From assembly GCA_034717985.1 (NCBI GenBank), contig JAYEMH010000032.1, positions 1 to 33,293 on the forward strand: 33,293 nucleotides of DNA. Direction: 5' to 3'. Below the pieces are notes generated by a model, which saw only the letters and a list, made by a program, of their open reading frames with translations, was not told where the DNA came from and did not search any database. This document shows, piece after piece, positions 1-32,459 of the stretch; the stretch's first letter is position 1, and each line of letters starts with the position of its first letter. The DNA is from JAYEMH01 sp034717985 [NCBI: Candidatus Ratteibacteria bacterium]. GTDB lineage: Bacteria > CAZDME01 > JAYEMH01. The translations under genes were made by a program, and so were the position numbers.

Positions 1-1078
1 AGAAATCGTTTAAACTTGGCCCCAAAGCCAATATGGTGCTTATTAGCAATCCGCCGGCAAAAAAGAGCCGGTTGATTTTCTCTTCATACTGATTTGTATT
101 ATTTGCCGGACGGCAGGAACTAAAAATAAACCCCAAAAAAGCCAGGGCCAAAGAAACCATTCCTAAATAAATATTTTTTTCGGCGTCAACATTCCCACGG
201 CTGAACAAATCTCTGATTCCCGGCGAATAGAGTCTTACTTCCGAAAGATCCCTCCCTTTCCGGGCAATAGAAACTCCCAATTCAACATTTTTCAAAAAAA
301 CAACGAAAAGAAAAACCAGAAGCAGAGATAGAAAAATCGGCGCCCAGGCTTTCAGCAGGCGCTTTATCAAATTGAAATTGGCCTCCTTCCACCTGGCCAG
401 GCTGGTAACTGTTCTTATGGGCAGAAACAGCAGACTAAAGAAACTTAGATAGTAGAGAAGATGGTACTCTATCAGGGCGAAACTAAAAAGACAAAAGAAA
501 TAAAGAAGAGCAAACTTAAGCTTCCCTTCAGAAAAAAGTTTCTCCAGGGAAAAAACCGCCAGCGGTACTATTCCCCACAGGAAACCGTTGGTATGCCCGC
601 CTAAAAGCTGGGCAACGGTAAAGGGGGAAACCGCATAGATTAAACCGGCAATAAAAGCCGGGAAATCACTTTTAAGGTAAATCCGGGCTAAAAGAAACAT
701 TGCCAGCCCCGAAAAGGTCAAGGAAATAATCACCGTCGCGTTATAAGCAAAAGCTCCCCCAAAAACGGAAAAAATTACAAAAATAATCGAAAGAGGAAGA
801 CGCCTGACAGTGAATATTTTAATCCCCGGGACACTGAATTCATACGGGTCAACAAAAAAAGGCTTTTCCCTTCGCAAGGCATCCCGGGCTAACCAGAAGT
901 GATAGTAGAGCTGGAGGTGGTCACCCTGCTCTAAAACCCTCACATCCCAACCTTCAGCCGGCGTTCTGGTATAGGGAATACCCCGGTTAAAATAAGAAAT
1001 TAAAGGGTAGGTAAGAACTGCGCTTAAGGAGAAGAAAATTAAAATAACAAAGATAATTTTGAGTCTATTCTTTTTCAC
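1..1078 (-). CDS. GT-C type membrane glycosyltransferase-like protein, 3' end outside window
   Basis: My own translation gives about 359 residues, open through the left edge, so the C-terminus is missing. It starts with GTG at 1078, inside the last codons of the upstream gene (14-bp overlap), with AGAGG seven bases upstream. After one N-terminal membrane segment there is an acidic extracytoplasmic loop (GWDVRVLEQGDHLQLYYHFW, then VDPYEF). Alternating hydrophobic segments follow, including a LALGPSL motif near the edge that recurs in the gene at 15882-17801. This layout fits GT-C fold polyprenyl-phosphate-sugar-dependent glycosyltransferases. The acceptor and sugar cannot be read from sequence. 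Overlap with the fusion gene indicates translational coupling at the end of a polysaccharide operon. Confidence is good for a coding gene and moderate for the activity. Confidence 0.75.
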   Translation of the reverse strand, partial: MKKNRLKIIFVILIFFSLSAVLTYPLISYFNRGIPYTRTPAEGWDVRVLEQGDHLQLYYHFWLARDALRREKPFFVDPYEFSVPGIKIFTVRRLPLSIIFVIFSVFGGAFAYNATVIISLTFSGLAMFLLARIYLKSDFPAFIAGLIYAVSPFTVAQLLGGHTNGFLWGIVPLAVFSLEKLFSEGKLKFALLYFFCLFSFALIEYHLLYYLSFFSLLFLPIRTVTSLARWKEANFNLIKRLLKAWAPIFLSLLLVFLFVVFLKNVELGVSIARKGRDLSEVRLYSPGIRDLFSRGNVDAEKNIYLGMVSLALAFLGFIFSSCRPANNTNQYEEKINRLFFAGGLLISTILALGPSLNDF

Positions 1079-3908
1079 TCAAACCTCTTTTAATCCAATC
1101 GTCAACCACTTTGACTAACTCTTTTATCGCTTCTTCTCTTTGAAGGGTATTTTCTGCCGCATAGTAATGTTCTGTATCCGGGATGGTAATTCGGGTTATA
1201 TCTCCATCTATGGAGCTGCAAAAATCAGTAAGAAACTGTAAATCTTTCTTTGGGGCATTGCCTTCATCAACAAATAATACCGGAATAGCAAAGTGACGGC
1301 CTTTGAAGCTTTCTAATATAATCGGGCGGTGTATTTCTTCCAGTATCTTTTTGGGCGGTAGAGCTTTTAATTTCATGTCCTCTTCCATTGTTTTTTGCAG
1401 CCATTCCAAACCCAATAAAGGATTCTTTTTAAAAAATAGTTCGTTCATCCGACGGGGAGGAGAGATTAATACTATTTTATCTGCTTTGGATTTGTCTGCA
1501 AGGATGGAACTATCTTGTTCTGCTGCCACTGCTAACGTGAGAGCAGCGCCAAAAGAATGCCCCATAAGTATTAATTCCCTTACTCTGTATTCTCCCCTTA
1601 TATAGCCTATAGCACTTGCTAAGTCTTGCTTCCAGTTGAAGCTTTCTGCCTTAGTAATATCGGACGGGTCATCTGATTCACCAAATCCCCGGTAATCAAA
1701 GGTAAAAACCAAATATTTTCTCCTGGCGAAACGTTCAGCTAATTCTCTATAGAAAAATTTCTGTTGTCCATCGGGATTCGAGCCATGAGAAAGAATTATA
1801 ATTGGAATAGGCGAATGGCTATCTAATTCTATCGGCCTATATGTATAACCTGCCAGATTTAAATCCCCACTTTTAACGTTCACTTTGTCTCGTTTTAGAT
1901 AACCTTTTTGACCAAATAGCTCAATTTCATATATTGACCACCAATAAGCATTATGGCGGCCAGTTTGCTCTAACTTTACAAACCTAACTAAGCGGGGTTT
2001 AAAGCAAATCTCAAATTTAGCATTTTTCTCTGTCATAACCGGATGAAACTTACCCCGGTGTAAAGCCGCCCAGTTTGCATTTGAAACGATTATATTCTGC
2101 CATTTTTCTCCATCTAAAGAAGTTGATAAACTATAGCCCCGGGGATAATCATAAGGCGAATCACCCAGTTCCAAAACTATTCGACAAATTTGCTTTGCTT
2201 TACCTAAATCAAGCCCAAAATACATCCCTGGCGCTTGGGCAAGTTTTGTCGTCCAACGCGTCATCGGGTTCCCATCCAGGGCATAATTAGCTTCATCCTG
2301 ATTATAATTAGAAACCGCCTGAACTTTAGATAAATCTATCTCCTGATAATCTTTTTCTAGAGGTTTAAAATCATAAAATAAAGTTACCCCAGCTATATTT
2401 TTTCTTTTGTACGATTTTGCCCCAATATTCCTTAGTATTTGGCCAAAAACAGTTTCGTTTTCCGGAAAGCAAAAAGCAACATCTTTAGTCTGCTTAGCGC
2501 CCTCAAAATATGCCGGATAACGACTGGGATTCCACTCGGTAAAAATTATTCTCTCTTGAACGTCAAAGGTATGATTGTAGCTTCGCCAGTAGTCATTCAC
2601 ATACACATATTTAATTCCTTCCTTCTCTAAAAAGGTAAATAATTCTTTTTTATTCCTTTTCTCTTCAAAAAACTCCTTTCGCTTATCCTTATTAAAAAGG
2701 TCAACGGATACAATATTCTGCTGGACATTGGCAATGAGAACTATACCGGTAATAAAAATAGATAATTTTTTGTGCTTTCCGCTAAGCTCAGCTATAAAAT
2801 AGGCTAAATATACCGGCAGACTTAAATATAAAATCAACATGTATCGCCGGGTATTAACTAAAGCATATCCGCTGAAAGTATAAATTAATGCAAAGACAAT
2901 GAAGAAAACGATAAAGAGCTCCATTCCATTACTTTTCTTAAGAGATAATTTCCCCAAATGAAACAGACCCTTAAAACGATCTTTCAGAATAAACACAAAG
3001 GCTGCCACATAAATTATTAATAAAAGGTGAGATATTATAGGTATGTATATTCCGCGGTTAGATTTTATCACTCCAAAGATTACCGGGAGACCAACTACAA
3101 AAAAATTTTTAAGACCTGTTGCAATGTTAGTAAATTTCTCCTCTCCTATGGACTTAAACGGGCTAAAGTCATTACGAAAACAATAATACCAGAAAGGGCT
3201 GCCTCCGACAGCTATACCCAGAACAAGATTTAAAAATCTCCGGGTAAAAAATATAAGCTTCTTGCGGAGAAAAATAAAGAAGAAACTGGTTAATATAAAA
3301 TAAATACTTTGAAAATTTGTCCACCAGGCCAAACCATAAGTCAATCCCAATCCAAAAAAGAGCCTGCCTGAATTTACACCCTTCTCTTCATACACCCCGT
3401 TAGAAATATGCGCCGACGATGCATCATCTGGCGTTAGTAGATTATTTCTAACGGGGTACACTATCCGGTAGGTAAGATAAAACACAATCGCCCCAAAAAT
3501 TAAATTTTCAACGTAGTTGGCCCGGGGCAAAACCGTATTTACTACCAGATAGCGGGCTGGAATAGCAGTGAATAAAAGAGTTAAAATTCCTACCTTCTCT
3601 CCAAATGCCCTCCGGGCCAGTATGTACATAAGAAGCATGAACACAATGGATTCACACACTGGGACGATATTCAGGGTATAGCGCGATACACCAAATACGG
3701 CAAAAACCGGAGCGGTCAAATAGGCTTCAATCGCCCCGCAATAATTTTGCCCCCAGAAAAAAACCGGAAATTCACCCCTTAAGATATAGCGGGCCATAAG
3801 CCCGGTTACGGCCATATCCGAGTCCATAAAGGGTAAAACCCAGTGCAGTAACCGAATTACTATCCCCAGGGCAATGATTACAAAAACTATTTTTTTCCCT
3901 CTATTCAT
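1065..3908 (-). CDS. GT-C glycosyltransferase fused to F5/8C (discoidin) and alpha/beta hydrolase domains
   Basis: The protein has 947 residues and three visible modules. Residues 1-410 are multi-pass membrane, with an acidic first loop (MDSDMAVTGL, D29/D31) typical of PMT/GT39-like GT-C enzymes, followed by a small soluble segment to about 515. Residues 525-668 look like an F5/8-type C (discoidin/CBM32-like) domain: ALDGNPMTRWTT, a YFGLDLG strand, SLDGEKW and a closing YEIELFG. Residues 672-945 are an alpha/beta hydrolase: LSHGSNPDG oxyanion region, FDYRGFGESDD, nucleophile elbow GHSFG (S785), VDEGN (D881, possible acid) and TEHYY (H914). It starts with ATG at 3908, overlapping the upstream GT2 stop as ATGA, so the two are probably co-translated. 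The GT2 could make the lipid-linked donor. The hydrolase may remove or transfer an acyl group on the glycan; that role is inference. Residues 151-172 are encoded by a palindromic insertion. Confidence 0.85.
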   Translation of the reverse strand: MNRGKKIVFVIIALGIVIRLLHWVLPFMDSDMAVTGLMARYILRGEFPVFFWGQNYCGAIEAYLTAPVFAVFGVSRYTLNIVPVCESIVFMLLMYILARRAFGEKVGILTLLFTAIPARYLVVNTVLPRANYVENLIFGAIVFYLTYRIVYPVRNNLLTPDDASSAHISNGVYEEKGVNSGRLFFGLGLTYGLAWWTNFQSIYFILTSFFFIFLRKKLIFFTRRFLNLVLGIAVGGSPFWYYCFRNDFSPFKSIGEEKFTNIATGLKNFFVVGLPVIFGVIKSNRGIYIPIISHLLLIIYVAAFVFILKDRFKGLFHLGKLSLKKSNGMELFIVFFIVFALIYTFSGYALVNTRRYMLILYLSLPVYLAYFIAELSGKHKKLSIFITGIVLIANVQQNIVSVDLFNKDKRKEFFEEKRNKKELFTFLEKEGIKYVYVNDYWRSYNHTFDVQERIIFTEWNPSRYPAYFEGAKQTKDVAFCFPENETVFGQILRNIGAKSYKRKNIAGVTLFYDFKPLEKDYQEIDLSKVQAVSNYNQDEANYALDGNPMTRWTTKLAQAPGMYFGLDLGKAKQICRIVLELGDSPYDYPRGYSLSTSLDGEKWQNIIVSNANWAALHRGKFHPVMTEKNAKFEICFKPRLVRFVKLEQTGRHNAYWWSIYEIELFGQKGYLKRDKVNVKSGDLNLAGYTYRPIELDSHSPIPIIILSHGSNPDGQQKFFYRELAERFARRKYLVFTFDYRGFGESDDPSDITKAESFNWKQDLASAIGYIRGEYRVRELILMGHSFGAALTLAVAAEQDSSILADKSKADKIVLISPPRRMNELFFKKNPLLGLEWLQKTMEEDMKLKALPPKKILEEIHRPIILESFKGRHFAIPVLFVDEGNAPKKDLQFLTDFCSSIDGDITRITIPDTEHYYAAENTLQREEAIKELVKVVDDWIKRGLSEKE
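3394..3457. repeat. Palindromic element inserted in frame in the fusion gene
   Basis: The 14-bp arms ACCCCGTTAGAAAT (3394-3407) and ATTTCTAACGGGGT (3444-3457) are perfect inverted repeats. The 36-bp centre holds a second imperfect palindrome around GATGCATC. The element encodes about residues 151-172 (starting YPVRNNLL) of the GT-C domain, between two membrane segments. The core CCCGTTAGA recurs in the hairpin at 23489-23517. Confidence 0.8.
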
Positions 3909-4723
3909 TTACCCAGCCTGATTTTGAAAACAGTAATGATGTAGCGCCGGAGATGAAACAAAAAATTTGTCTTGCTTTTCCCTGATGGCCGCTGTTGATA
4001 GACAACCGGAATCTCTATTATTGATAATTTCCTCCTGCCGGCTTGATAGAGAAAGCGGATAAAGTAATCGCCATAGCCTTTAAAGATTTGCTCAAGATTA
4101 AAGCTCTTCAGAAGTTGCTTTGAAACGGCAAAAAAGCCGGAAAGATTATCGTTGGTTTTAATCCGTAAAATAAGCTTTACAAAGACATTAAAAAGATAGC
4201 TCCCCCAGTATCTAAATTGAGTTCCTTTCATGCCGCCTCCAGCAACAAATCTTGAACCAACAGCAATATTAAAACTTTCCAACTGCTTAACCAGAATCGG
4301 AATTGTCCGGGGGTCGTGGTTGAAATCAGTGTCCATAAAAACTAAATTTTCTTTGGCCGCCTTCTCTATTCCGAATTTGACAGCTGAAGCCAGTCCCCGT
4401 TCATTTTTCCGAATATAAACTTTTATCCGGGAATCATTTCCGAATGATTTCCGAACAGCCCCGGCAGTGCCATCAGGACTGTTATCATCTACCAGAATTA
4501 TCTCCGGGACAAGGGCCGCTCCTGCGGCCACCAGACAAATTTCCTTTATCAACTCAACAATATGTCCGGCTTCATTATAGGTTGGGAGAATGACAGAAAT
4601 CTCCTTCAAGAAAATCGCTTCGCGATAACCTTTTGGCGATTTTCGCCGTCCCCCCTGCTTTGATTTCGAAGTCGAAGGCTGAGAAATCAAGGGGGAATGA
4701 TATCCTTTACTATGTGGGAGCAA
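3905..4723 (-). CDS. GT2 glycosyltransferase, polyprenyl-phosphate-sugar synthase-like (DPM1 family)
   Basis: The conserved GT2 part runs from about residue 41 (ISVILPTYNEAGHI) through VDDNSPDGT to MDTDFNHDP, the metal/nucleotide-binding acidic motif, and ends with GYGDYFIRFLY and a basic YQQRPSGKSK stretch as in DPM1-type enzymes. No C-terminal membrane segments are seen, so it resembles the soluble or peripheral subclass. The likely reaction is transfer of a hexose from a sugar nucleotide to polyprenyl phosphate at the cytoplasmic face, supplying the adjacent GT-C enzyme; the two genes overlap as ATGA. The start used is TTG at 4723, just after the stop of the aminotransferase, with GAGAGGG about seven bases upstream. 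This gives a 38-residue basic N-terminal extension encoded by hairpin DNA (4610-4695). A second TTG at about residue 39 is an alternative start giving a standard length. Confidence 0.85.
   Translation of the reverse strand: MLPHSKGYHSPLISQPSTSKSKQGGRRKSPKGYREAIFLKEISVILPTYNEAGHIVELIKEICLVAAGAALVPEIILVDDNSPDGTAGAVRKSFGNDSRIKVYIRKNERGLASAVKFGIEKAAKENLVFMDTDFNHDPRTIPILVKQLESFNIAVGSRFVAGGGMKGTQFRYWGSYLFNVFVKLILRIKTNDNLSGFFAVSKQLLKSFNLEQIFKGYGDYFIRFLYQAGRRKLSIIEIPVVYQQRPSGKSKTNFLFHLRRYIITVFKIRLGK
4610..4695. repeat. Two adjacent REP-like palindromes in the GT2 5' region
   Basis: Hairpin one has arms GAAAATCGC (4610-4618) and GCGATTTTC (4636-4644). Hairpin two pairs TTGATTTC with GAAATCAA (4683-4690), extended by runs of five C (from 4651) and five G (4691-4695). 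Both lie inside the open reading frame of the GT2 gene and encode its unusual N-terminal extension if the upstream TTG is the real start. Confidence 0.7.
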
Positions 4724-4724
4724 A

Positions 4725-5849
4725 TTATTTCCCTCTCTGGCACTTTCTAATCGATTCAGAAATATATTTAATTTCCGGCTCCGTTAAAGCCGGTGATGAA
4801 GGTAAATTTAAGCCTGCTTTTGATAATTTTTCGGCGACCGGATATTTGTCCGAATTTCTATAAGGCGGAAGTTTATGCAAGGGGAAGAAAAACGGCCGGC
4901 TGTCAATTCCGGATTTTTTTAATTTAGCCCCCAATTCATCCCGGGAAATACCAAAGGCCGGATTAATTAAAATACTATACATCCAGTAAACATTCTTTGC
5001 CCAGGAAGCCTCTTTGGGCAACGTCAGCTCTTTGATACCGGTTAAATACTGATTATAAAGACGGGCAATTTTTCGTTTCCGGGAAATAGTTTCTCTGATT
5101 TTCTCTAACTGCGCCAGGCCGATAGCCGCCTGGATATTTGTCAGGCGAAAGTTGTAACCAATTGCCGTATGCCAATATCGCTTCCGGCGAGACATCCCGT
5201 GGTCTCTGAGGAACCTGGCTTTTTGGGCCAGGGAGGCGCTATTGGTAACAATCATACCTCCTTCTCCGGTTGTAATTATCTTGTTGCCGTAAAAGCTAAA
5301 ACAGGCCAGGTCGGATAAACTGCCGACTTTCTTACCTTTGTATAAGGCGCCGTGAGCTTCGGCGGCATCTTCAATTAAAAGAAGTTTATGCTGACGGGCG
5401 ATATCTCTAACCTCATCCATATTAGCCGGGTGACCGTAAAGATGAACAACCATAATCGCTTTGGTTCGGGGATTGACCTTCTTCCGGATCTCCCCGGGAT
5501 CAATAGTCCATGTTTCTTCCTCCACATCAGCAAAAACCGGTTTAGCCCCGGTGTAAGTAACAGCATTAGCTGAGGCAATAAAGGTTAAATCAGGAACAAT
5601 TACCTCATCCCCCGACCCCACCCCCGTCACTAAAAGAGCCAGCTGAAGCGCCGTTGTTCCGTTAGAAGTCGCCACACCATGTTTCCTCCCGCAAAACTTG
5701 CTGAACTTATCTTCAAACTTGGCAATGTATTTCCCTATAGAAGAAATCCAGTTGCTCTTAAGGCAATCTAAAACATACTCCTTCTCTTTTCCCGATAATC
5801 GCGGTTCATATACCGGGATAAATTTTCTTTTATCAATTTGTGTACTCAT
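4725..5849 (-). CDS. DegT/DnrJ/EryC1/StrS aminotransferase (perosamine-synthetase-like)
   Basis: This is a full-length 374-residue PLP-dependent sugar aminotransferase. Visible family motifs are SNGTTALQLAL (phosphate binding, about 62-72), DLTFIASANAVTYTGAKPVF (87-106), VHLYGHPANMDEV, IEDAAEAHG (D161) and SFYGNKIITTGEGG with the Schiff-base lysine at K190, then LRDHGMSRRKRYWH and GYNFRLTNIQAAIG. These enzymes transfer an amino group to a 3- or 4-keto nucleotide sugar. The pattern looks closest to GDP-perosamine-synthetase-type members, but I cannot fix the substrate. The ATG at 5849 has no clear ribosome binding site; the upstream DNA is repeat and a gene remnant. Four bases after its stop is the start of the GT2 gene, indicating one operon. 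Its product probably becomes an amino sugar in the exported glycan. Confidence 0.92.
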   Translation of the reverse strand: MSTQIDKRKFIPVYEPRLSGKEKEYVLDCLKSNWISSIGKYIAKFEDKFSKFCGRKHGVATSNGTTALQLALLVTGVGSGDEVIVPDLTFIASANAVTYTGAKPVFADVEEETWTIDPGEIRKKVNPRTKAIMVVHLYGHPANMDEVRDIARQHKLLLIEDAAEAHGALYKGKKVGSLSDLACFSFYGNKIITTGEGGMIVTNSASLAQKARFLRDHGMSRRKRYWHTAIGYNFRLTNIQAAIGLAQLEKIRETISRKRKIARLYNQYLTGIKELTLPKEASWAKNVYWMYSILINPAFGISRDELGAKLKKSGIDSRPFFFPLHKLPPYRNSDKYPVAEKLSKAGLNLPSSPALTEPEIKYISESIRKCQRGK

Positions 5850-6001: not shown

Positions 6002-7426
6002 CTAAGAATGTTTTACCTCTTCGTGATATTGCTGAATTTTGTTTACTTCGTCAATGTCGTAGTCGGCCCCCAGAACATTTAAAGCAGCTTTCATTCCTGT
6101 CTCTATGGAATGGTCCATATTGTTATATTTATAGGTCCCGTAGCGTCCGATAATTTGAAGATTACGGAAATTCTTTATGAAATTTTTTACGGTTTCATAA
6201 TGCTTTCGATAGCCAATCTCATACAGCGGATAAGCCTTTTCTACCCTGGAAACATCGGCATCGATTATTTCCTGCGATGCAACCAGTCCCAGTTTATTTG
6301 CCATTTCGTTAATAGTCAAATCGATCAGTTCCCGGTCAGATTTATTCCAGATGGAATCGCCTTTAAAACAAAAATATTCGGCCACAATCGAAGTTTTATC
6401 AGGAGTCGCCATCGCTCGGCTCCAGTTTTTGGGCTCGTGGAGCCGTCCAAAGGTAATTTCGGGGTCGTGAATATAGATCCAGGTGTTTTCTGTCACCTGT
6501 TTTTTATCTAACATTAAAGTAACGGTAATTAACTCCCGATAACGAAGATGATGCGCCGCTTCAAGAATTTCTCCGGGGGCAGACGGTTCCATAATCCCAA
6601 CCAGCTCTGTAAAAGGAATACTGGAAATAAAACCGGCTGCTTCCAGGATTGACTCTCCGCAATTTTCTTCCACCACTACCGACTTTATCTGAAAGCCGTC
6701 ACGGTTAATTCTTTTTACCCGGTGAGACAAAAGAACCCGATTATTATTTTTTTCAATTTCTTCCTTAAACCTCTCCGAAATTCTTCCAATCCCCAGCTTT
6801 GGATAATGAAACTCTTCAATTAAAGTTTTGGGGCGATTTTTCTCTGATTTAAATAGGGCATTGGCTATGGCCACCCGAAGGGACAGGCCTTTAATTCTCT
6901 GGGCGACCCACTCGGCGCCTATCTTTTTACAATCAATACCCCAGACCTTCTCGGTGTAAGTCTTAAAATACATCTCAAATAAAGTCCGCCCGAATTTATT
7001 GACCACCCAGTCTTCCAGAGATTCAATTTTAGGTTTGCAGAATATCGATTTAAAATGCTCGCGGCTGTAATCAGCGATAATTTTGAGGCTGGTTAAAAAT
7101 CCCATGCCAAAAAGAGCGTTTAGGGGCTTCAGGGGATAATCAAAATATTTCTTTTTATAATAAATTTTGCTCGTTCGCGGAACAAGGCCGAACTCTTCGC
7201 CCATTAAATTTTCTACCAGATTAAACACCTCTTGATTCTTGGTAAAAAAGCGGTGTCCCCCTAAATCATAGCGGAAGTCTCCTTTACAAATGGTCCTGGC
7301 AATACCGCCGACAGCATTTTCCTTCTCACAAACAACAACCGGAATTTGCTTCCGGGAAAGGAGACAGCCGGCGGCCAGACCTGCCGGACCGCCGCCCATA
7401 ATTAAAACCTGTTTTTCTTTAGTCAC
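6002..7426 (-). CDS. FAD-dependent oxidoreductase, amine-oxidase/UDP-galactopyranose-mutase-like
   Basis: The 474-residue protein opens with a dinucleotide-binding Rossmann motif (VLIMGGGPAGLAAG, glycines at 11-16), then CEKENAVGGIARTI and DLGGHRFFTKN, the FAD-contacting pattern of the amine oxidase / protoporphyrinogen oxidase / UDP-galactopyranose mutase superfamily. The C-terminus has IGRYGTYKYNNMDHSIETG, the second FAD-contact region. Length is greater than a classical UGM (about 370-390). In glycan loci such proteins are thought to act on sugar nucleotides, for example as mutase-like enzymes; the precise reaction here is unknown. It starts with GTG at 7426, overlapping the upstream GT4 stop (GTGA), with GGAAG seven bases upstream, so it is in the same transcript as the GT4. 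Confidence 0.85.
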   Translation of the reverse strand: MTKEKQVLIMGGGPAGLAAGCLLSRKQIPVVVCEKENAVGGIARTICKGDFRYDLGGHRFFTKNQEVFNLVENLMGEEFGLVPRTSKIYYKKKYFDYPLKPLNALFGMGFLTSLKIIADYSREHFKSIFCKPKIESLEDWVVNKFGRTLFEMYFKTYTEKVWGIDCKKIGAEWVAQRIKGLSLRVAIANALFKSEKNRPKTLIEEFHYPKLGIGRISERFKEEIEKNNNRVLLSHRVKRINRDGFQIKSVVVEENCGESILEAAGFISSIPFTELVGIMEPSAPGEILEAAHHLRYRELITVTLMLDKKQVTENTWIYIHDPEITFGRLHEPKNWSRAMATPDKTSIVAEYFCFKGDSIWNKSDRELIDLTINEMANKLGLVASQEIIDADVSRVEKAYPLYEIGYRKHYETVKNFIKNFRNLQIIGRYGTYKYNNMDHSIETGMKAALNVLGADYDIDEVNKIQQYHEEVKHS

Positions 7427-8490
7427 TTCAATTCTTCCAGATGGCTTTTTAATAAAACTTCTATTTTTGAACCGTTGAATTGTTTGAGCCTCCCGGTTTC
7501 TTTATCTGTAATCTGCTTCCGCAAATCGTTATCTTTGAGCACTAAATCAGCCATCTCAGCGATAGCCGGGAAGTTTTTCTCCTTAACTAAAATTCCCGCG
7601 CCTCCCAGCGTTTCCGGAATGGCCGCCGCTTTATAAGCGATAATCGGGATTTTAAAATACATGCTCTCAAGAAGCGGTATACAAAAACCCTCATGTTCAC
7701 TCATACAGACAAAAATATCAGCCAGATTATAATAGGCTAAGAGTTCGGTTGTATTTACATGTCCGGTAAGGTGAACATCGGGTAAATCCAATTCAATAAT
7801 CAATCCGCGCAAATAGGCTAAATACCGATCTATTCCTGAAGCTGAACCAACCAGGAATAATCTTGATTTCGGCTCAATCAACTTTTTATAACAATAAAAA
7901 ATTTTAATTACATCTTCTATTTTTTTATTAGGTGCAACCCGGCCGACAAAAAGAAAATTTTGGTAATAATCAGAAAACTTCTTTGAAACTTTCGAGCTGG
8001 GCCTGGCGGATAAATAATTAAGATTGACAATTAAAGGTAAAACCCCTGTATTGATAAATCCGGCTTCACTCAACTCTTTTCGATTATATTCAGAAACAGC
8101 CAGGGCTAAATCAGGAACCCCGGCCAACTCCTCAAGTTCCCTTTTCCCCTGTTCAAGAACCATTGCCTTTTCATCGCTTATTGCCCGGAAATACTCAGGA
8201 GGAGTAATATTATGATAAACAAGGACTTTTCGGCCTTTAACCTTCTTGAAATATTCAGTCAACTCTGACCCAATAGAAAAATGAAAAATAGTTATATCAT
8301 CATCTCTATTGGTCAGGCGATGTTCATTATAATCATGAATTAAAGCCTTGCCATCCCGACTGGCGTGTTGATAAATACAATAAATCTCCGACTGATGTCC
8401 CCAGCGGCGCAAGATTCTCTGTAATTCCAGAACATAATTACTTATGGCATCCCCGGTGCTAAATCCGGGAAGCATTTGATTTATTCTCAT
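7423..8490 (-). CDS. GT4 family glycosyltransferase (GT-B fold)
   Basis: The 355-residue protein starts MRINQMLPGFSTGDAISNYV, with an N-terminal acceptor domain, then FLFVGRVAPNKKIEDVI (start of the C-terminal donor domain, about residue 185), HLTGHVNTTELLAYYNLADIFVCMSEHEGFCIPLLESM with the E-x7-E nucleotide-sugar motif, and IAYKAAAIPETLGGAGILV. These are hallmarks of retaining GT4 enzymes that add sugars to a lipid-linked glycan at the cytoplasmic face. The ATG at 8490 lacks a clear ribosome binding site; upstream lies a palindrome-rich repeat region. It overlaps the flavoprotein gene by four bases. Confidence 0.92.
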   Translation of the reverse strand: MRINQMLPGFSTGDAISNYVLELQRILRRWGHQSEIYCIYQHASRDGKALIHDYNEHRLTNRDDDITIFHFSIGSELTEYFKKVKGRKVLVYHNITPPEYFRAISDEKAMVLEQGKRELEELAGVPDLALAVSEYNRKELSEAGFINTGVLPLIVNLNYLSARPSSKVSKKFSDYYQNFLFVGRVAPNKKIEDVIKIFYCYKKLIEPKSRLFLVGSASGIDRYLAYLRGLIIELDLPDVHLTGHVNTTELLAYYNLADIFVCMSEHEGFCIPLLESMYFKIPIIAYKAAAIPETLGGAGILVKEKNFPAIAEMADLVLKDNDLRKQITDKETGRLKQFNGSKIEVLLKSHLEELK

Positions 8491-8505
8491 TTTTAATGAA
8501 CCCGT

Positions 8506-8687
8506 GACTTATGGAGCGTCAGCGAACATAAGTCGCTGGGCGAATTATCCCCAGCGTTTAGACCCTTCCTTTGTAAGGATTAGTAAGGCCTATCCTTTAG
8601 ACCCCTCCTTAAAAAGGAGCAGGAGGGTCTATCCTTTAGGGTTAGGATTAGATTTGCTAAAGCAAATCTACAGGGGATTTTTCCCCT
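8506..8687. repeat. Cluster of five short hairpins
   Basis: Stems, in order: GACTTATG/CATAAGTC (8506-8513, 8527-8534); CGCTGGG/CCCAGCG (8534-8540, 8550-8556); GACCCCTCC/AGGAGGGTC, imperfect (8600-8608, 8621-8629); TAGATTTGCT/AGCAAATCTA (8649-8658, 8661-8670); and AGGGGA/TCCCCT (8672-8677, 8682-8687). The last is followed by T-rich DNA on the plus strand and could act as a terminator in that direction. The stretch lies between two minus-strand GT4 genes. Confidence 0.75.
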
Positions 8688-8869
8688 TTTCCTTATCTTT
8701 TTAATCCTGTAAATCCTGTCGGAAATTCTTTTTTCTCTATTTATAAACCGACATTCCTTTCCCAAAATGTCCCAAATATGTCTCATAAAATGTCTCAAAT
8801 ATTCAGTTCATAATAGACGCCTTTCTTTTCACCTTTCATCTTTTCTCTATGAACTCTGTGGTTATTTTT

Positions 8870-8929
8870 ACGGTAAACGGTAAATGCAAGAAGGGAAAAA
8901 GCCGTCTCTCATCTCTCGTCTCCCGTTTA
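8870..8929. repeat. Short heptamer repeat tracts
   Basis: ACGGTAA occurs twice in tandem at 8870-8883. Three further 7-bp units (CCGTCTC, TCATCTC, TCGTCTC) run from 8902 to 8922, followed by CCGTTTA, whose CGTTTACC is the inverse of GGTAAACG in the first tract. The 7-bp spacing is the same as in the other heptamer tracts of the window although the word differs. Confidence 0.6.
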
Positions 8930-9182
8930 CCACAATGGTACTGTCAATAACCACAGCTTATTCTTTTTTCTTGTTTTTCTCTGTGTTCACCTGTGTCCAT
9001 CTGTGGTTTAATTTCTTTTCTGCTTTTTCTTTTATGTTAATCTGTGATTCATCTTTTTTTAATCCTGTAAATCCCGTCAGAAATTCTTCTTTCTCTATTT
9101 TTCAGTTTTCTTTTCCTCCGTGTGCTCTGCGGTTAATTTCTTTTCCTGTGGTTATTTTTTAATCCTGTAAATCTTGTCGGAT

Positions 9183-10373
9183 CTAAATTCCAAACTTATC
9201 CAAAGCCGCTTCAAACCTATCCAAAACCGCCTCCCAGCTAAAATTCTTCTCTACGTATGATTCTCCGTTCTGCCCCATCCGGTCGGTTAAGTCTTTCTCC
9301 CGCAAAAAGAAATTAAGGCATTCTTCGAATTCAAAATAATTTTTGAAAAATAATCCACCTTTACTGCGCAGACAATGGTCTTTTGTCACCGCGCAATCAC
9401 TATGAACTAAAACCGGCCGGCCGGATAACCACGATTCCATCATCACAATAGAAAGGCTTTCATTAACCGAAGGCTGGCAGAAAAATAAAGCCGCCCCAAA
9501 ACCGTCAAGTTTTTCTTTTTCCACAATGTAGCCAAGATCTAAAATATCCTTTTTAGATTCAACTGGAATATTTACCTCACCTGTCCCCAAAAGAACTAAT
9601 TTCAATTCATTTTTATTGTAACATTTGTAGGTTCGGAAGTATTCGATTAGAAGCGGCATGTTTTTCCCCCCCTCTCTTCTTCCGGCAAAAAGCATAAAAG
9701 GGGTATTTAAGGCATATTTTTTTCTAAAATTGTCCGGATTATAGCTTCTGTGAGTTTCAAACCCCAGACTGACCAGGCTTATCTTTTCATCAGGCAGTTT
9801 ATAAAGTCTTTTGGCCAACTCAATTTCCGGGAAGGTATTAAACATTAATCCCCTTACATTATCAAAAAGGGTCTTATAAATTTCAAGCTCGGCAAATGCT
9901 TCATCATGCAGGCAGGGAATGAGCAGAGATTTCTCCGGACAGACCTGAACTCCCCAGTAAGTCAAACCGAATAGATAAGGAATAAAAACGAAGCAGTCAT
10001 AATTATGCCTCTGCCTGTCAATATACCCATATAACTCCTCAGAGTTCACACTTTCCTTAATCCACCTGATTTGCTCTTCATAGGAAACCTCCAGGCGACG
10101 GTCAATCCGGTTCTGAATAGTCAAAAACTCGTTACTGCGGCGATTAAGATTCACCCGAAATCGCCAGACCAGAATATCATTAATTGTCTTTTTCCCCGGC
10201 TCGTAATAATTTTTCCAGGTGAAATGGTCCCGGGCACAGGTAGTCAATACCTCAACGTTGTGTCCGCGCTTTTTTATCCTTTCAGCCAGGCGCTGAGCGT
10301 GAACCTCTGCTCCCCCAGCTGAAACCGGCTCATACCGCGGCACAATAAAAGCAATCCGCCTCTTTTTAATCAC
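9183..10373 (-). CDS. GT4 family glycosyltransferase
   Basis: The 396-residue protein begins IAFIVPRYEPVSAGGAEVHAQRLAERI, the glycine-rich N-terminal loop common in GT4 enzymes, and has FMLFAGRREGGKNMPLLI at the start of the donor domain, LVLLGTGE, and QPSVNESLSIVMMESWLSGRPVLV with the E-x7-E motif, closing with a C-terminal helix (NFSWEAVLDRFEAAL). It is probably a cytoplasmic sugar transferase of the glycan pathway. The start is uncertain: GTG at 10373 overlaps the excellent ribosome binding sequence AGAGGTG, so the true start may be a few codons further in. Repeat DNA begins directly after the stop and fills the gaps on both sides. Its first about 40 bases are duplicated at 5872-5914. Confidence 0.92.
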   Translation of the reverse strand: MIKKRRIAFIVPRYEPVSAGGAEVHAQRLAERIKKRGHNVEVLTTCARDHFTWKNYYEPGKKTINDILVWRFRVNLNRRSNEFLTIQNRIDRRLEVSYEEQIRWIKESVNSEELYGYIDRQRHNYDCFVFIPYLFGLTYWGVQVCPEKSLLIPCLHDEAFAELEIYKTLFDNVRGLMFNTFPEIELAKRLYKLPDEKISLVSLGFETHRSYNPDNFRKKYALNTPFMLFAGRREGGKNMPLLIEYFRTYKCYNKNELKLVLLGTGEVNIPVESKKDILDLGYIVEKEKLDGFGAALFFCQPSVNESLSIVMMESWLSGRPVLVHSDCAVTKDHCLRSKGGLFFKNYFEFEECLNFFLREKDLTDRMGQNGESYVEKNFSWEAVLDRFEAALDKFGI

Positions 10374-10803
10374 CTCTTAACCCTTTCCTAAAATTCTCTA
10401 AATCTATCCAAAAAAATCTTTGACAGGATTAACTGGATTTTTATTCTCTCTTTTGACGGGATTAACAGGATTTTATTTTAAAGCTCCAGCTTTTTTATCC
10501 TGTCTCTTTTAATCCTGCAAATCCTGTCGGAAATTCTTTTTTCTCTATTTTTTAGTTTTCTTTTCATCCGTGTGCTCTGTGGTTAATTTTCTTTTTTTGT
10601 TTATTTTTCGTCTGTGTTCACCTGTGTTTATCTGTGGTTATTTTTATTTCTTTTTTCTTGTTTTTCTCCGTGTGCTCTGTGGTTAAATTCTTTTCCTGTG
10701 GTTATTTTTTTATCCTGTAAATCCTGTCGGAAATTCTTTTGTTTTTTCCCTTTTGTTTTTCCTTTTTCCTTATTTTTTAATATCCGTGTTAATCCGTGTC
10801 TTT
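10374..10803. repeat. Intergenic block of 9-10-bp periodic word repeats
   Basis: From left to right: GACAGGATTAACTGGATT and GACGGGATTAACAGGATT (10423-10472); a hairpin with arms ACAGGAT (10465-10471) and ATCCTGT (10497-10503) enclosing AAAGCT/AGCTTT; then AATCCTGCAAATCCTGTC, CCGTGTGCTCTGTGGTTAA, CGTCTGTGTTCACCTGTGTT, TCTGTGGTTATTTTT and again TCCTGTAAATCCTGTC, ending with ATCCGTGTTAATCCGTGT (10782-10799). The last words form the C-terminus and stop of the next gene. A stretch of more than 50 bases recurs in the block at 20946-21733. No other gene is supported here. Confidence 0.8.
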
Positions 10804-13683: not shown

Positions 13684-14421
13684 ATGAAAAAAATATTCGC
13701 GGCATTATTTCTAACACTTATCTGTTCAGCATGCTCATCAGAAATTCCTCAAAATGCAGCAACAATACCGGTTCCACAACCTAAATCTATTGTTAGCGGG
13801 CCGAATTCGTGGACCCCGCGGTTTATCAAAAAAAATCAAGCTGTCAAAAATGGTAATATCGATTTGGTGTTCATAGGGGATTCTATTACTGCGGGGTGGG
13901 AAACCGGAGCAGGTAAAGAGATATGGGAAAAATATTACTCAAAAAAGAAGTCTCTCAACTTAGGATTTGGCGGTGACCGGACAGAACATGTAATCTGGAG
14001 ATTGCAAAATGGAAATTTTGATGGAATAAATCCCAAATTAGTCGTTTTGATGATTGGCACTAACAACACCGGCCGGCGAATGGATAATCCGGTTATGATA
14101 GCCGAAGGCATAAAACTAATAATAGAAACTATCCATCTGAAATCACCAAGCACCAAAATTCTGCTGCTCGGGATATTCCCGAGGGAAAAAACAAAAGATG
14201 GTCCGATGAGAAAAAATAATGATAACGTTAACGAAATAATAAAGAACTATCCCAAAAACTATAAATTTGTTGATTATCTGGATATCTCGAAAAATTTTTT
14301 AAATGAAGATGGCACCTTATCGCGGGAAATAATGTATGATTTATTGCATCTGACATCTAAGGGCTACGGAATATTGGCTGAGGCTTTAGAAGAAAAAATA
14401 AAGGAGTTAATGGAAGAATAA
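13684..14421 (+). CDS. SGNH/GDSL-family esterase, probably exported
   Basis: The 245-residue protein has an N-terminal signal (MKKIFAALFLTLICSAC) ending in a lipobox-like but atypical C17, suggesting a lipoprotein. The catalytic blocks of the PAF-acetylhydrolase-like SGNH group are visible: FIGDSITAGW (S67), LGFGGDRTEHV, MIGTNNTG (N127) and DLLHLTSKGY (D219, H222). Likely activity is removal of O-acetyl or other acyl groups from an extracellular glycan or lipid, which would fit the locus; the substrate is not shown. It is the only substantial plus-strand gene, has its own promoter, and its last 58 bases overlap the convergent RibD-type gene. The ribosome binding site is weak (AGAGAAAAT before ATG). 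Confidence 0.92.
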   Translation: MKKIFAALFLTLICSACSSEIPQNAATIPVPQPKSIVSGPNSWTPRFIKKNQAVKNGNIDLVFIGDSITAGWETGAGKEIWEKYYSKKKSLNLGFGGDRTEHVIWRLQNGNFDGINPKLVVLMIGTNNTGRRMDNPVMIAEGIKLIIETIHLKSPSTKILLLGIFPREKTKDGPMRKNNDNVNEIIKNYPKNYKFVDYLDISKNFLNEDGTLSREIMYDLLHLTSKGYGILAEALEEKIKELMEE

Positions 14422-15107
14422 ACCGGTTTAGCCGTAACAACCAAATCCCGCCCCATCTTTTGAACCTTTTCAAATTTAAATTCGGGCAATTGGGCAATAT
14501 CGGAAATTTCCCGCCCGCCAACAGTCTCTAATCCCCGGCCCATAATTTCAGGGGCAATAATAACAATCAATCTGTCGGCTAAACCCTCTTTTAAAAAAGA
14601 GGTAATAACCTTACTCCCTCCTTCAACCAGCAAGCTCTTTATTTTTAATTTTCTCAAAAAACCTAAAAGCTTCCGCAAATTCACCCGGCCTTTTTTATTT
14701 CCGGGAACAAGAAGAACCTCAATCCCCCGCCGTCGAAAAAGTTCAATCTTTCTTTTCGGGGCTAATTTCGTCGCGGCGATAATTGTCCGGGTCTGCCTGC
14801 CTTGCAAGATAAGCTTAGATTCAAGCGGGGTGCGCAATCCGGAATCAAGAATAATCCGGATGGGACTTCTTCCCTTAACCAGGCGGACGGTCAAAAGAGG
14901 GTTATCTTTTATCACCGTATTGACACCGACCAGAATAGCTTGATGCTGCGCCCTTAACTTATGGACGAAACCGAGGGCCTCCGGCCCGCTAATCCGGCAG
15001 GAACGGCCGGAGCGGGCGGCAATCTTGCCATCCAGTGTTTGGGCATATTTAATAGTAACAAACGGTTTTCTTTTCATTCTATATTTTTTAGCAATTTCAT
15101 TTTTCAT
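14364..15107 (-). CDS. RibD C-terminal-type (DHFR-fold) pyrimidine reductase
   Basis: The conserved part starts KPFVTIKYAQTLDGKIAARSG and continues ISGPEALGFVHKLRAQHQAILVGVNTVIKDNPLLTVR, RIILDSGLRTPL and LLVEGGSKVITSFL. This is the NADPH-dependent reductase domain that acts on 5-amino-6-ribosylamino pyrimidine phosphates in riboflavin synthesis. The N-terminal deaminase domain of bifunctional RibD is absent, so it is a stand-alone reductase of about normal length (around 220). Starts at 15107 or 15074 are both possible; the second matches the family start better, while the first has an AGGA from repeat DNA upstream. The last about 18 residues (SSINSFIFSSKASANIP) lie antisense to the esterase gene and look non-conserved, as if an original stop was lost. 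Its presence in a glycan locus is unexplained. Confidence 0.87.
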   Translation of the reverse strand: MKNEIAKKYRMKRKPFVTIKYAQTLDGKIAARSGRSCRISGPEALGFVHKLRAQHQAILVGVNTVIKDNPLLTVRLVKGRSPIRIILDSGLRTPLESKLILQGRQTRTIIAATKLAPKRKIELFRRRGIEVLLVPGNKKGRVNLRKLLGFLRKLKIKSLLVEGGSKVITSFLKEGLADRLIVIIAPEIMGRGLETVGGREISDIAQLPEFKFEKVQKMGRDLVVTAKPVYSSINSFIFSSKASANIP

Positions 15108-20939: not shown

Positions 20940-21064
20940 CAACACACACTTTTTTTATTTATTTATTGTGTTAATCTGTGTCCATCTGTGGTTTGTCTTT
21001 TGTTTTTTTCTCTCTGTGAACTCTGTGGTTAAATTCTTTCTCTGTATTTGTGATATTTTGCCTG

Positions 21065-21099
21065 CCCCGTACCTAAGCCAAAGGCGAATGGTATCGGGG
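21065..21099. repeat. Hairpin within the repeat block (first copy)
   Basis: CCCCGTACC pairs, with one bulge, with GGTATCGGGG, and an inner GCC-AAA-GGC closes the loop (TTT on the minus strand). The second copy is at 21423-21457. Confidence 0.7.
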
Positions 21100-21422
21100 T
21101 TTGTCCTGTGTTCACCTGTGTTTATCTGTGGTTAATTTTCTTTTTTTGTTTATTTTTCTTCGTGGTCTTCGTGTTCTTCGTGGTTGTTTTTTGTTTCTTT
21201 TTTCCTTTGCCATTTTGACTTTTTATTTATTTCTCGTGTTTATCTGTGGTTATTTTTATTTCTTTTTTCTTGTTTTTCTCCGTGTCCTCTGTGGTTAATT
21301 TTCTTTTTTTGTTTATTTTTCGTCTGTGTTCACCTGTGTCCATCTGTGGTTTGTCTTTTGTTTTTTTCTCTCTGTGAACTCTGTGGTTAAATTCTTTCTC
21401 TGTATTTGTGATATTTTGCCTG

Positions 21423-21457
21423 CCCCGTACCTAAGCCAAAGGCGAATGGTATCGGGG
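21423..21457. repeat. Hairpin within the repeat block (second copy)
   Basis: Identical copy, 358 bases to the right of the hairpin at 21065-21099. Confidence 0.7.
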
Positions 21458-21584
21458 TTTGTCCTGTGTTCACCTGTGTTTATCTGTGGTTAATTTTCTT
21501 TTTTTGTTTATTTTTCTTCGTGGTCTTCGTGTTCTTCGTGGTTGTTTTTTGTTTCTTTTTTCCTTTGCCATTTTGACTTTTTAT

Positions 21585-23531: not shown

Positions 23532-23804
23532 TTAATCCTTTTGGCCTTTTAAAAATCGCGCCAACTCAATAAATATCCCGGCAACTAAAGATAAATATGC
23601 CACCCTGGCCAGCCATTCAGCTATCTTCTGCTGTTTCAAAATGAGCAGAAAGGCACAGATAGTTAAAAGAAATATAAAACCCAATATAAATCCCGAGCCG
23701 GGATTATGTCTCAAATAATTGAAAAACCTATTAAACCAACTATTCATTTTATTGTTTTCTAAAATACCCAGCCCAGTGAACCAAAAGATATTAGATAATC
23801 CCAA
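23532..23804 (-). CDS. Small membrane protein, unknown function
   Basis: Up to 90 residues; the better start may be ATG at 23747 (MNSWFNRFFNYLRHNPGSG), giving 71. It has one or two hydrophobic segments (GFILGFIFLLTICAFLLIL and VAYLSLVAGIFIELARFL) and a short polar C-terminus. It follows the MazF gene directly (14-bp overlap if the long start is used) and precedes a GT-C gene. No family recognised; possibly an accessory subunit of the neighbouring membrane enzyme. Confidence 0.55.
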   Translation of the reverse strand: MGLSNIFWFTGLGILENNKMNSWFNRFFNYLRHNPGSGFILGFIFLLTICAFLLILKQQKIAEWLARVAYLSLVAGIFIELARFLKGQKD

Positions 23805-24135
23805 GATGAATCAAAAGTGCCTCTTCTATCTTCTTTAAACTTTCTTTCGATATCCTGTTTAAAAGTTTAATTAACCGTTTTTTATCTAAGGTTCGGATCT
23901 GATTAGCTTTTACCTTTGAATCTTTAGGAAGTTGACTTTCTTCTTTAAAAAGAAGAGTCTCAAAAGGATATATTTTTTCCGTTTTTGAAGTAAGAGGAAG
24001 AACGGTAATCGTATCAGCAAATTGGTTATTACGGTTGTTGGAAATTACAAAGGCTGGTCTTGTCTTTCCTATTTCATGACCGACTACTGGTTCTAATGAA
24101 ACAAGCCAAATTTCACCTCTCTTAGGAAAATTCAT
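23791..24135 (-). CDS. MazF/PemK-family endoribonuclease toxin
   Basis: The 114-residue protein has the family start PKRGEIWLVSLEPVVGHEIGKTRPAFVISNN, then ADTITVLPLTSKTEK and VKANQIRTLDKKRLIKLL, all hallmarks of MazF/PemK toxins that cut mRNA at short motifs. ATG at 24135 lies three bases after the antitoxin stop with GGATGG upstream, so the pair is translated together. It is probably a complete, functional type II toxin, inserted between the AftD-like and GT-C genes. Confidence 0.93.
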   Translation of the reverse strand: MNFPKRGEIWLVSLEPVVGHEIGKTRPAFVISNNRNNQFADTITVLPLTSKTEKIYPFETLLFKEESQLPKDSKVKANQIRTLDKKRLIKLLNRISKESLKKIEEALLIHLGII

Positions 24136-30947: not shown

Positions 30948-30979
30948 TTACTCTCCAGCCCTTTCTATCTGTACCGGCT

Positions 30980-32446: not shown

Positions 32447-32459
32447 ACCCCTGTCTGTT

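What the first reader, a model, noticed from the sequence alone, without database searches (positions are those of the whole stretch)
1065..3908. One polypeptide joining GT-C glycosyltransferase, discoidin domain and alpha/beta hydrolase
The order membrane GT-C (1-410), F5/8C-like domain (525-668), then hydrolase with GHSFG S785, D881 and H914 would place a glycan-binding module and an esterase or acyltransferase beside a sugar transferase on the outer face. I do not know a described enzyme with this architecture. It could glycosylate and then de-acylate or acyl-transfer the same glycan.
Basis: partly seen in the sequence, partly recalled or inferred. Interest (0 to 1): 0.7.

Follow-up and report, generated by a model that had tools for sequence, protein, structure and literature searches.

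The report
Sugar transferase fused to an esterase-like enzyme
A single membrane protein from an unnamed microbe joins a sugar-adding enzyme, a sugar-binding domain and an esterase-like domain that relatives carry on separate proteins, which suggests that one machine adds a sugar to a surface chain and trims acyl groups from it.

Summary
The ORF at 1065-3908, minus strand, is one unbroken 947-residue frame: a polytopic GT-C-type region (1-410), a small soluble domain, an F5/8 type C domain (529-661, 2.6e-14) and an alpha/beta hydrolase (674-940; Hydrolase_4 2.9e-14). GT-C plus discoidin is a family: at least 14 such proteins lie in 8 of 44 Auribacterota genomes. A profile of 11 of them, without the window, matches residues 7-668 at 3.3e-153. 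None of the 14 matches the hydrolase profile; the 11 aligned end in an unrelated region. The window's hydrolase matches a profile made without it at 8.7e-44; the five relatives aligned are separate proteins, 4 of 5 with an N-terminal membrane segment. So the C-terminus was swapped at residue 668-674. No second triple fusion was found, but few candidates per genome were scored. An acylhydrolase link recurs without fusion: GDSL genes lie near three relatives, one overlapping by 4 bases, and in one Omnitrophota genome the hydrolase gene shares a run with GT2, GT-C and flippase genes. Best reading: a lipid-linked-sugar-dependent GT-C with a tethered glycan esterase. Activity, substrate and catalytic acid are unsettled; both fold predictions failed.

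The parts
2679..3908 (-). GT-C-type polytopic membrane region, residues 1-410, with D31 in the first loop after TM1
   Evidence: PMT_2 sub-threshold on the window protein (18.0 bits); four relatives pass the PMT_2 cut-off; D31 invariant in 12 of 12 and 11 of 12 in A4, the exception having Glu; nine hydropathy peaks between residues 7 and 402
2349..2678 (-). small soluble domain, about residues 411-520; relatives carry a similar module again after their discoidin domain
   Evidence: alignment A1; hhalign of the two regions: probability 89.6, E 1.9e-6
1905..2336 (-). F5/8 type C (discoidin, galactose-binding-like) domain, residues 525-668
   Evidence: PF00754 53.9 bits, E 2.6e-14; leave-one-out family profile 5.1e-24 at 521-667
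1089..1889 (-). alpha/beta hydrolase module, residues 674-940, with S785 and H914
   Evidence: Hydrolase_4 2.9e-14; profile of five other hydrolases, window left out, 8.7e-44 over 674-940
3394..3457 (.). in-frame palindromic insert in the GT-C coding region (perfect 15-base arms 3394-3408 and 3443-3457), residues about 151-172, absent from the 11 aligned relatives
   Evidence: the relatives' core profile skips residues 157-176
3905..4723 (-). GT2, polyprenyl-phosphate sugar synthase-like, overlapping the fusion gene by 4 bases (ATGA); candidate donor maker
   Evidence: Glycos_transf_2 6.9e-26; AglJ model 60.1 of 325 bits and ArnC model 49.3 of 529 bits, both far below cut-off
4725..5849 (-). 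DegT/DnrJ/EryC1-type sugar aminotransferase next upstream, one base from the GT2
   Evidence: PF01041 6.9e-132; LegC-family model 394.1 of 420 bits, PseC 298.7 of 423.5, ArnB 228.9 of 631
2..1078 (-). start of a protein downstream, overlapping by 14 bases and cut by the window edge; no Pfam hit

Best explanation
The gene encodes a bifunctional membrane enzyme of a surface-glycan locus. The N-terminal GT-C region takes a sugar, perhaps an amino sugar made with the neighbouring DegT aminotransferase and loaded onto polyprenyl phosphate by the overlapping GT2, and transfers it to a glycan on the outer face of the membrane. The discoidin domain holds the acceptor chain. The C-terminal serine hydrolase, fused where relatives carry another end, removes an ester-linked acyl group from the same glycan or from the sugar just added. 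Shown: one open frame, four domains, conserved core, swapped C-terminus, GHSFG serine and distal histidine. Inferred: topology, donor, acceptor, the reaction of the hydrolase and its coupling to transfer.
For: Core profile of 11 relatives, window left out, hits P0001 over 7-156 and 177-668 at 3.3e-153, while their C-terminal profile does not (0.99); hydrolase profile, window left out, hits 674-940 at 8.7e-44 and no relative better than 0.098. Each of 12 members matches GT-C and discoidin profiles built without it, the weakest discoidin value being 5.5e-8 in L101. At least 14 GT-C plus discoidin proteins in 8 of 44 Auribacterota genomes. ATGA overlap with a GT2, as fits a donor synthase and its GT-C (three-component systems, passages of PMC11127046). 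A GDSL acylhydrolase gene overlaps the closest relative by 4 bases (7202-8845 with 8842-11775 in L130), and GDSL genes lie near those in G586 and G589. In Omnitrophota G367 the hydrolase relative lies in one run of genes with two GT2, a PMT_2 GT-C and a polysaccharide flippase. Solved chains matching the hydrolase profile include cinnamoyl and chlorogenic acid esterases and monoglyceride lipases (60 of 244 shown).
Against: No triple fusion elsewhere, so no conservation supports function of the fused form. The third triad residue is unclear. The hydrolase of G367 has no membrane segment by hydropathy, so the family is not uniformly extracytoplasmic. The locus of the best full-length hydrolase relative (G634: Asn synthase, methyltransferase, DAO, LPG_synthase_TM, FG-GAP) is not plainly a glycan locus. 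Alpha/beta hydrolases are too broad for sequence to give the reaction. No flippase was recognised among the window proteins scanned. The G367 GT-C is not close to this one (blastp best E 1.6). Only selected neighbours of relatives were scanned. Pfam alone sees F5/8 type C at 0.01 in only 7 of the 11 relatives, above cut-off in 5.
Confidence: 0.5

Rival explanations
1. The hydrolase module is an acyltransferase: it moves an acyl group onto the sugar that the GT-C adds, through an acyl-enzyme on S785.
For: Serine alpha/beta hydrolases can transfer acyl groups (general knowledge); an acetyltransferase-like (left-handed beta helix type, read by eye) gene lies next to the relative in G634 (L150).
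Against: Of the 60 solved chains shown for the profile (of 244) most are named hydrolases, esterases or lipases, a few are unnamed proteins, and none is named an acyltransferase; no acyl-donor-binding feature was seen.
Confidence: 0.15
2. The module is an amidase or deformylase in an Arn-like path: the DegT amino sugar is N-acylated or N-formylated, carried by the lipid, and deprotected by the fused hydrolase, as ArnD (a different fold; recalled) does.
For: DegT and GT2 are one base apart and the GT2 overlaps the GT-C gene; the GT2 has a weak ArnC match. DegT and GT2 relatives lie with one ORF between them in Chloroflexota L001, L014 and L063, with large membrane proteins beside them (DUF2079 in L001, YfhO in L063, no Pfam hit in L014).
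Against: The DegT scores nearer the LegC-family and PseC models than ArnB; no formyltransferase was recognised among the window proteins scanned.
Confidence: 0.13
3. The hydrolase is a passenger: a fused module with no catalytic role in the pathway, or inactive for want of a proper acid residue.
For: Acid not at the usual place; no second fusion; relatives manage with another C-terminus.
Against: The serine, the histidine and GHS.G are kept in all six aligned; the frame is intact.
Confidence: 0.15
4. The fusion is an assembly chimera of two genes.
For: No second copy was found; read coverage cannot be examined here.
Against: The join is in frame, at a domain border, with like GC on both sides (0.40 and 0.39), and short overlaps tie both ends of the frame to same-strand neighbours.
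Confidence: 0.07

Closest known systems
GT-C plus discoidin proteins of Auribacterota (unnamed family, found here)
   Same: GT-C region, small soluble domain and discoidin in the same order; 18-25% overall identity, core profile 3.3e-153
   Different: In the 11 aligned, the C-terminus is an unrelated region shared among them; TPR above Pfam cut-off in L097 and L098; no hydrolase
Arabinosyltransferases EmbA-C and AftD, and ORF12 of family GT136
   Same: GT-C enzyme with extracytoplasmic carbohydrate-binding module acting on a surface polysaccharide (passages of PMC11127046)
   Different: No hydrolase module mentioned in those passages; the GT-C profile found no GT-C structure by sequence, so common descent of the parts is not shown
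PMT/ArnT-like GT-C (Pfam PMT_2, PF13231)
   Same: Conserved N-terminal 150 residues with Asp after TM1; four relatives pass the cut-off
   Different: The window protein itself scores 18.0 against 26.1
Hydrolase_4-type alpha/beta hydrolases, including membrane-anchored ones
   Same: GHSFG serine and histidine; 28% identity over 674-940 with the anchored protein of G634
   Different: The five aligned are separate proteins; here the anchor is replaced by GT-C plus discoidin

Membership tests
PMT_2 (PF13231) GT-C | Score above Pfam gathering cut-off on the window protein | tested here: not met
   18.0 bits against 26.1; 19.2 for the isolated region
PMT_2 (PF13231) GT-C | Homologues over the same region pass the cut-off | tested here: met
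   L097 30.7, L098 35.1, L099 29.5, L104 29.8 bits, 4 of the 10 scanned; 9 of 12 match at 0.01
GT-C fold glycosyltransferase | Acidic residue in the first loop after TM1 | tested here: met
   D31, 12 of 12 in A1; Glu in L141
GT-C fold glycosyltransferase | Predicted GT-C three-dimensional fold | tested here: inconclusive
   Single-sequence AlphaFold2 failed, mean pLDDT 36.2
F5/8 type C domain (PF00754) | Score above cut-off | tested here: met
   53.9 against 28.2 bits
alpha/beta hydrolase, Hydrolase_4 (PF12146) | Score above cut-off | tested here: met
   53.4 against 27 bits
alpha/beta hydrolase, Hydrolase_4 (PF12146) | Nucleophile elbow serine and distal histidine | tested here: met
   S785 and H914 in 6 of 6
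alpha/beta hydrolase, Hydrolase_4 (PF12146) | Catalytic acid at the usual site | tested here: inconclusive
   D881 shared with L150 and L094 only; the other three have Asp four places on (by eye)
Three-component extracytoplasmic glycosylation system | Polyprenyl-phosphate sugar synthase adjacent | tested here: inconclusive
   GT2 with ATGA overlap; scores far below specific NCBIfam cut-offs
Three-component extracytoplasmic glycosylation system | Flippase for the lipid-linked sugar | tested here: inconclusive
   None recognised among the window proteins scanned; the window is only part of the genome
EmbC/AftD arabinosyltransferases | Sequence relation of the GT-C region to solved members | tested here: not met
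   A4 profile against PDB sequences: 12 chains at E up to 1, none a GT-C enzyme
Glycan esterase | Enzyme activity | not testable with these tools
   needs experiment

The most novel reading that the evidence does not exclude
A one-polypeptide processing station on the outer face of the membrane: a lipid-linked-sugar transferase that holds the growing glycan through its discoidin domain and removes an acyl group at or near the site of addition, so that deacylation and glycosylation are obligatorily coupled. If so, the C-termini of this GT-C family are interchangeable glycan-tailoring tools.
Probability: 0.25. Interest if true: 0.62.

Novelty: new variant of a known kind. Interest (0 to 1): 0.45.

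Why it matters
It places two tailoring steps of surface glycans, sugar addition and probable deacylation, in one chain, and shows that a GT-C plus discoidin scaffold of uncultured bacteria can take a different C-terminal module. Fusions of this sort point to partners in a pathway; the acylhydrolase genes beside some unfused relatives make the pairing testable in loci where the parts are separate.

Tried and rejected
Missed stop or frameshift: rejected, the frame is open from 3908 to 1068. Internal start that would make the hydrolase separately: in-frame candidates between residues 641 and 800 are GTG 676, TTG 733, ATG 782 and GTG 794; GTG 676 stands just before the module and cannot be excluded, though I saw no clear ribosome site before it (by eye). 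Hydrolase hidden in the relatives' C-termini: rejected for the 11, and for the three further frames at E 1e-5.

Triple fusion elsewhere: not found. P0001 was searched in 3 genomes (2 with matches, limit 1e-5), 384 Omnitrophota (9, 1e-10), 198 of the Elusimicrobia locus's phylum (2, 1e-10), 44 Auribacterota (15, 1e-10; 29 of them had been searched), 30 assorted genomes (11, 1e-6), 36 of the class of G628 (1, 1e-8) and 400 of the Chloroflexota locus's phylum (64, 1e-12). The hydrolase part was searched in the 44 Auribacterota (7, 1e-5), and a five-row hydrolase profile in 400 and 364 genomes (19 at 1e-22, 6 at 1e-18). These sets overlap in part. In the large calls only the best 2 to 6 candidate places of a genome were scored, and one search's list of matches was cut, so a fusion could be missed. 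Among 2890 open frames of at least 150 aa in the 236 loci held at that time, none had both the hydrolase and a GT-C or discoidin match at 1e-5.

A weak point that I tested: the GT-C and discoidin profiles were built from the family itself, and Pfam sees F5/8 type C at 0.01 in only 7 of 11 relatives (missing in L100, L101, L102, L112), above cut-off in 5. Leave-one-out profiles find both regions in all 12 members; the rows came from one alignment that had held the left-out member.

Origin of the window: no genome is held for it. Its radical SAM protein matches 49 of 68 genomes from several phyla at 1e-20, the best by E-value at 32-33% identity, so I name no phylum. GT-C structure by sequence: nothing convincing. 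Structure prediction: two jobs, both too poor to use; fold searches were not run for that reason. Plasmid collection: one discoidin match only. Papers: searches (0 papers; 8 of 18 listed), 83 and 84 looked for such a fusion; I saw listings with abstract starts, and none describes one. Searches were for AftD and Auribacterota; of PMC11127046 I saw passages only. The library is open-access papers, not the whole literature.
Full report
What is there. The finding lies on the minus strand. One frame of 947 residues runs from ATG at 3908 to a stop at 1065-1067; the + strand reading is broken throughout. Pfam gives F5_F8_type_C at 529-661 (2.6e-14) and Hydrolase_4 at 701-840 (2.9e-14), both well above cut-off, and PMT_2 at 62-148 below cut-off, 18.0 against 26.1 bits. 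Hydropathy shows nine strong peaks between residues 7 and 402, and a tenth, at 779-797, inside the hydrolase, most likely a buried segment of that domain. An odd number of helices with the N-terminus inside puts the large C-terminal part outside; this is inference, and the charge bias of the loops is weak.

The core is a family. The window has no held genome and a first scan of species genomes found no relative. Using a neighbour to reach named genomes, I found good relatives in the phylum of Ca. Euphemobacter frigidus, Auribacterota in the NCBI taxonomy: 15 of 44 genomes match at 1e-10. Eleven long relatives were aligned (A1). Three further long frames (L116/L227, L117/L229, L120/L228) were not aligned but tested by profile. 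Together 14 proteins from 8 genomes carry both a GT-C and a discoidin match in one frame (by genome: G594, G586, G603, G606 one each, G598, G589, G591 two each, G597 four). Because those profiles come from the family itself, I repeated the test leaving out each of the 12 members in turn: all 12 match both, GT-C at 6.5e-75 or better, discoidin at 5.5e-8 (L101) or better. Pfam alone sees F5/8 type C at 0.01 in 7 of the 11 relatives. Asp31 is invariant in A1, and Asp or Glu in A4.

GT-C relatives without discoidin are wider. In Omnitrophota 9 of 384 genomes match: eight through the GT-C part and one, G367, through the hydrolase (L094). In the Chloroflexota locus's phylum 64 of 400 match, most rows in the GT-C part, four in discoidin and one in the hydrolase. 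A 649-residue protein of a genome labelled Actinomycetota is 34% identical over 8-515.

The C-terminus is swapped. I built three profiles. The relatives' core profile, without the window, matches the window protein at 7-156 and 177-668 with E 3.3e-153. Their C-terminal profile matches the 11 it was built from and not the window protein (0.99). A profile of five other hydrolases, without the window, matches the window protein at 674-940 with E 8.7e-44 and the relatives no better than 0.098. The exchange is therefore clean, between residues 668 and 674. In two of the 11 relatives scanned the other C-terminus scores as TPR above cut-off (L097, L098). In the ten relatives used for the comparison (L099 left out) the region after the discoidin resembles the small soluble domain before it (hhalign probability 89.6, E 1.9e-6).

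The hydrolase elsewhere is a protein of its own in the five cases aligned: an anchored 361-residue protein in the Anaerolineae genome G634 (28% over 674-940, 3.3e-20), anchored proteins in Auribacterota G599 (two) and G607, and an unanchored one in Omnitrophota G367. All six, the window's included, keep GHS.G and the distal histidine. The acid is less clear: the window, L150 and L094 share an Asp at 881, the other three have one four places later (by eye). In 44 Auribacterota genomes 7 hold a match to the hydrolase part at 1e-5. Profile matches to solved structures are mostly esterases, lipases and other hydrolases (60 of 244 shown).

Surroundings. The gene overlaps by ATGA with a GT2 of the polyprenyl-phosphate sugar synthase kind, which lies one base from a DegT-type sugar aminotransferase. 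The window is a glycan locus: further GT2 and GT1 genes, Wzt-like and Wzm-like ABC genes, and large proteins with PTPS_related, YfhO or LA_3751-like matches. A donor synthase, a flippase and a GT-C make up three-component extracytoplasmic glycosylation, and binding modules on GT-C enzymes are known from EmbA-C, AftD and GT136 (passages of PMC11127046). DegT and GT2 relatives lie with one ORF between them in Chloroflexota L001, L014 and L063, beside large membrane proteins.

An acylhydrolase recurs beside some unfused parts. In G594 a GDSL acylhydrolase gene overlaps the GT-C plus discoidin gene by 4 bases; in G586 one is the third gene downstream on the same strand; in G589 one lies between two such genes, on the other strand. 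GDSL enzymes are a different fold from the window's hydrolase (recalled). I scanned only selected neighbours: 2 in G594, 3 in G586, 2 each in G603 and G589, 1 each in G591, G598 and two loci of G597, none in G606. The G586 gene was chosen because blastp pointed to the window's own GDSL protein. So three of eight genomes is a selected look and not a rate, and I ran no control for how common GDSL genes are in such loci. In G367 the hydrolase gene lies in one run with Amidohydro_2, two GT2, a PMT_2 GT-C and a polysaccharide flippase; that GT-C is not a close relative. In G634 the neighbours are an acetyltransferase-like gene, Asn synthase, methyltransferase, DAO, LPG_synthase_TM and FG-GAP genes, which is not plainly a glycan locus.

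How it most likely works. Donor sugar on polyprenyl phosphate from the GT2; transfer by the GT-C on the outer face; acceptor held by the discoidin domain; ester removed by the serine hydrolase on the same chain. The first three steps rest on family knowledge and gene order, the last on fold, GHSFG serine, histidine and the acylhydrolase neighbours. None was tested. An amidase or deformylase role, as in the Arn path, is a serious rival because of the DegT gene. An inactive or structural passenger cannot be excluded.

Limits. Read coverage cannot be seen. In the large genome searches few candidates per genome were scored. No metagenome scan was available.

Verdict. A real, so far single, fusion: a new variant of GT-C enzymes with extracytoplasmic modules. 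Interesting for the coupling it suggests, not a new kind of system.

Noticed in passing
window 3394-3457: A palindromic element with perfect 15-base arms (3394-3408, 3443-3457) sits in frame inside the GT-C coding region, adding about 20 residues that the 11 aligned relatives lack. Its 13-base core occurs exactly only in these two arms of the window; 20 viral contigs hold a 15-base pattern of it, but none of the loci held then has both arms within about 100 bases.
   Followed up: partly
window 8699-10794 and 20943-21753: Arrays of diverged repeats of the type CTGTGTTCACCTGTGTCCATCTGTGGTT and ATCCTGTAAATCCTGTCGGAAATTC, including a 300-base unit repeated at 97% (20950-21249 and 21308-21607); they run into the 3' end of the YfhO-like gene and give it a low-complexity tail.
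   Followed up: no
window 1065-3908: GC content of the fusion gene is uneven: 0.44 (GC3 0.48) in residues 1-150 against 0.34 in 182-525 and 0.39-0.40 in discoidin and hydrolase.
   Followed up: no
window 13684-14421: A GDSL acylhydrolase with a lipoprotein-like N-terminus (read by eye), convergent with a RibD C-terminal domain gene at 14364-15107 whose end it overlaps.
   Followed up: no
window 23791-24135: A PemK/MazF-type toxin gene inside the glycan locus (2.3e-31); I did not look for its antitoxin.
   Followed up: no
window 29481-32503: Two tandem B12-binding radical SAM genes; for the one searched (29481-30947) the best matches by E-value in 68 genomes are 32-33% identical.
   Followed up: partly
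L129 761-3493 (frame), minus: In Auribacterota G599 a hydrolase of the same type opens a 911-residue open frame whose remainder looks like low-complexity reading of a wrong frame (by eye); not resolved.
   Followed up: no
L132 8754-10826, minus: Next to one GT-C plus discoidin gene in G603 lies a protein kinase-type protein carrying three F5/8 type C stretches.
   Followed up: no
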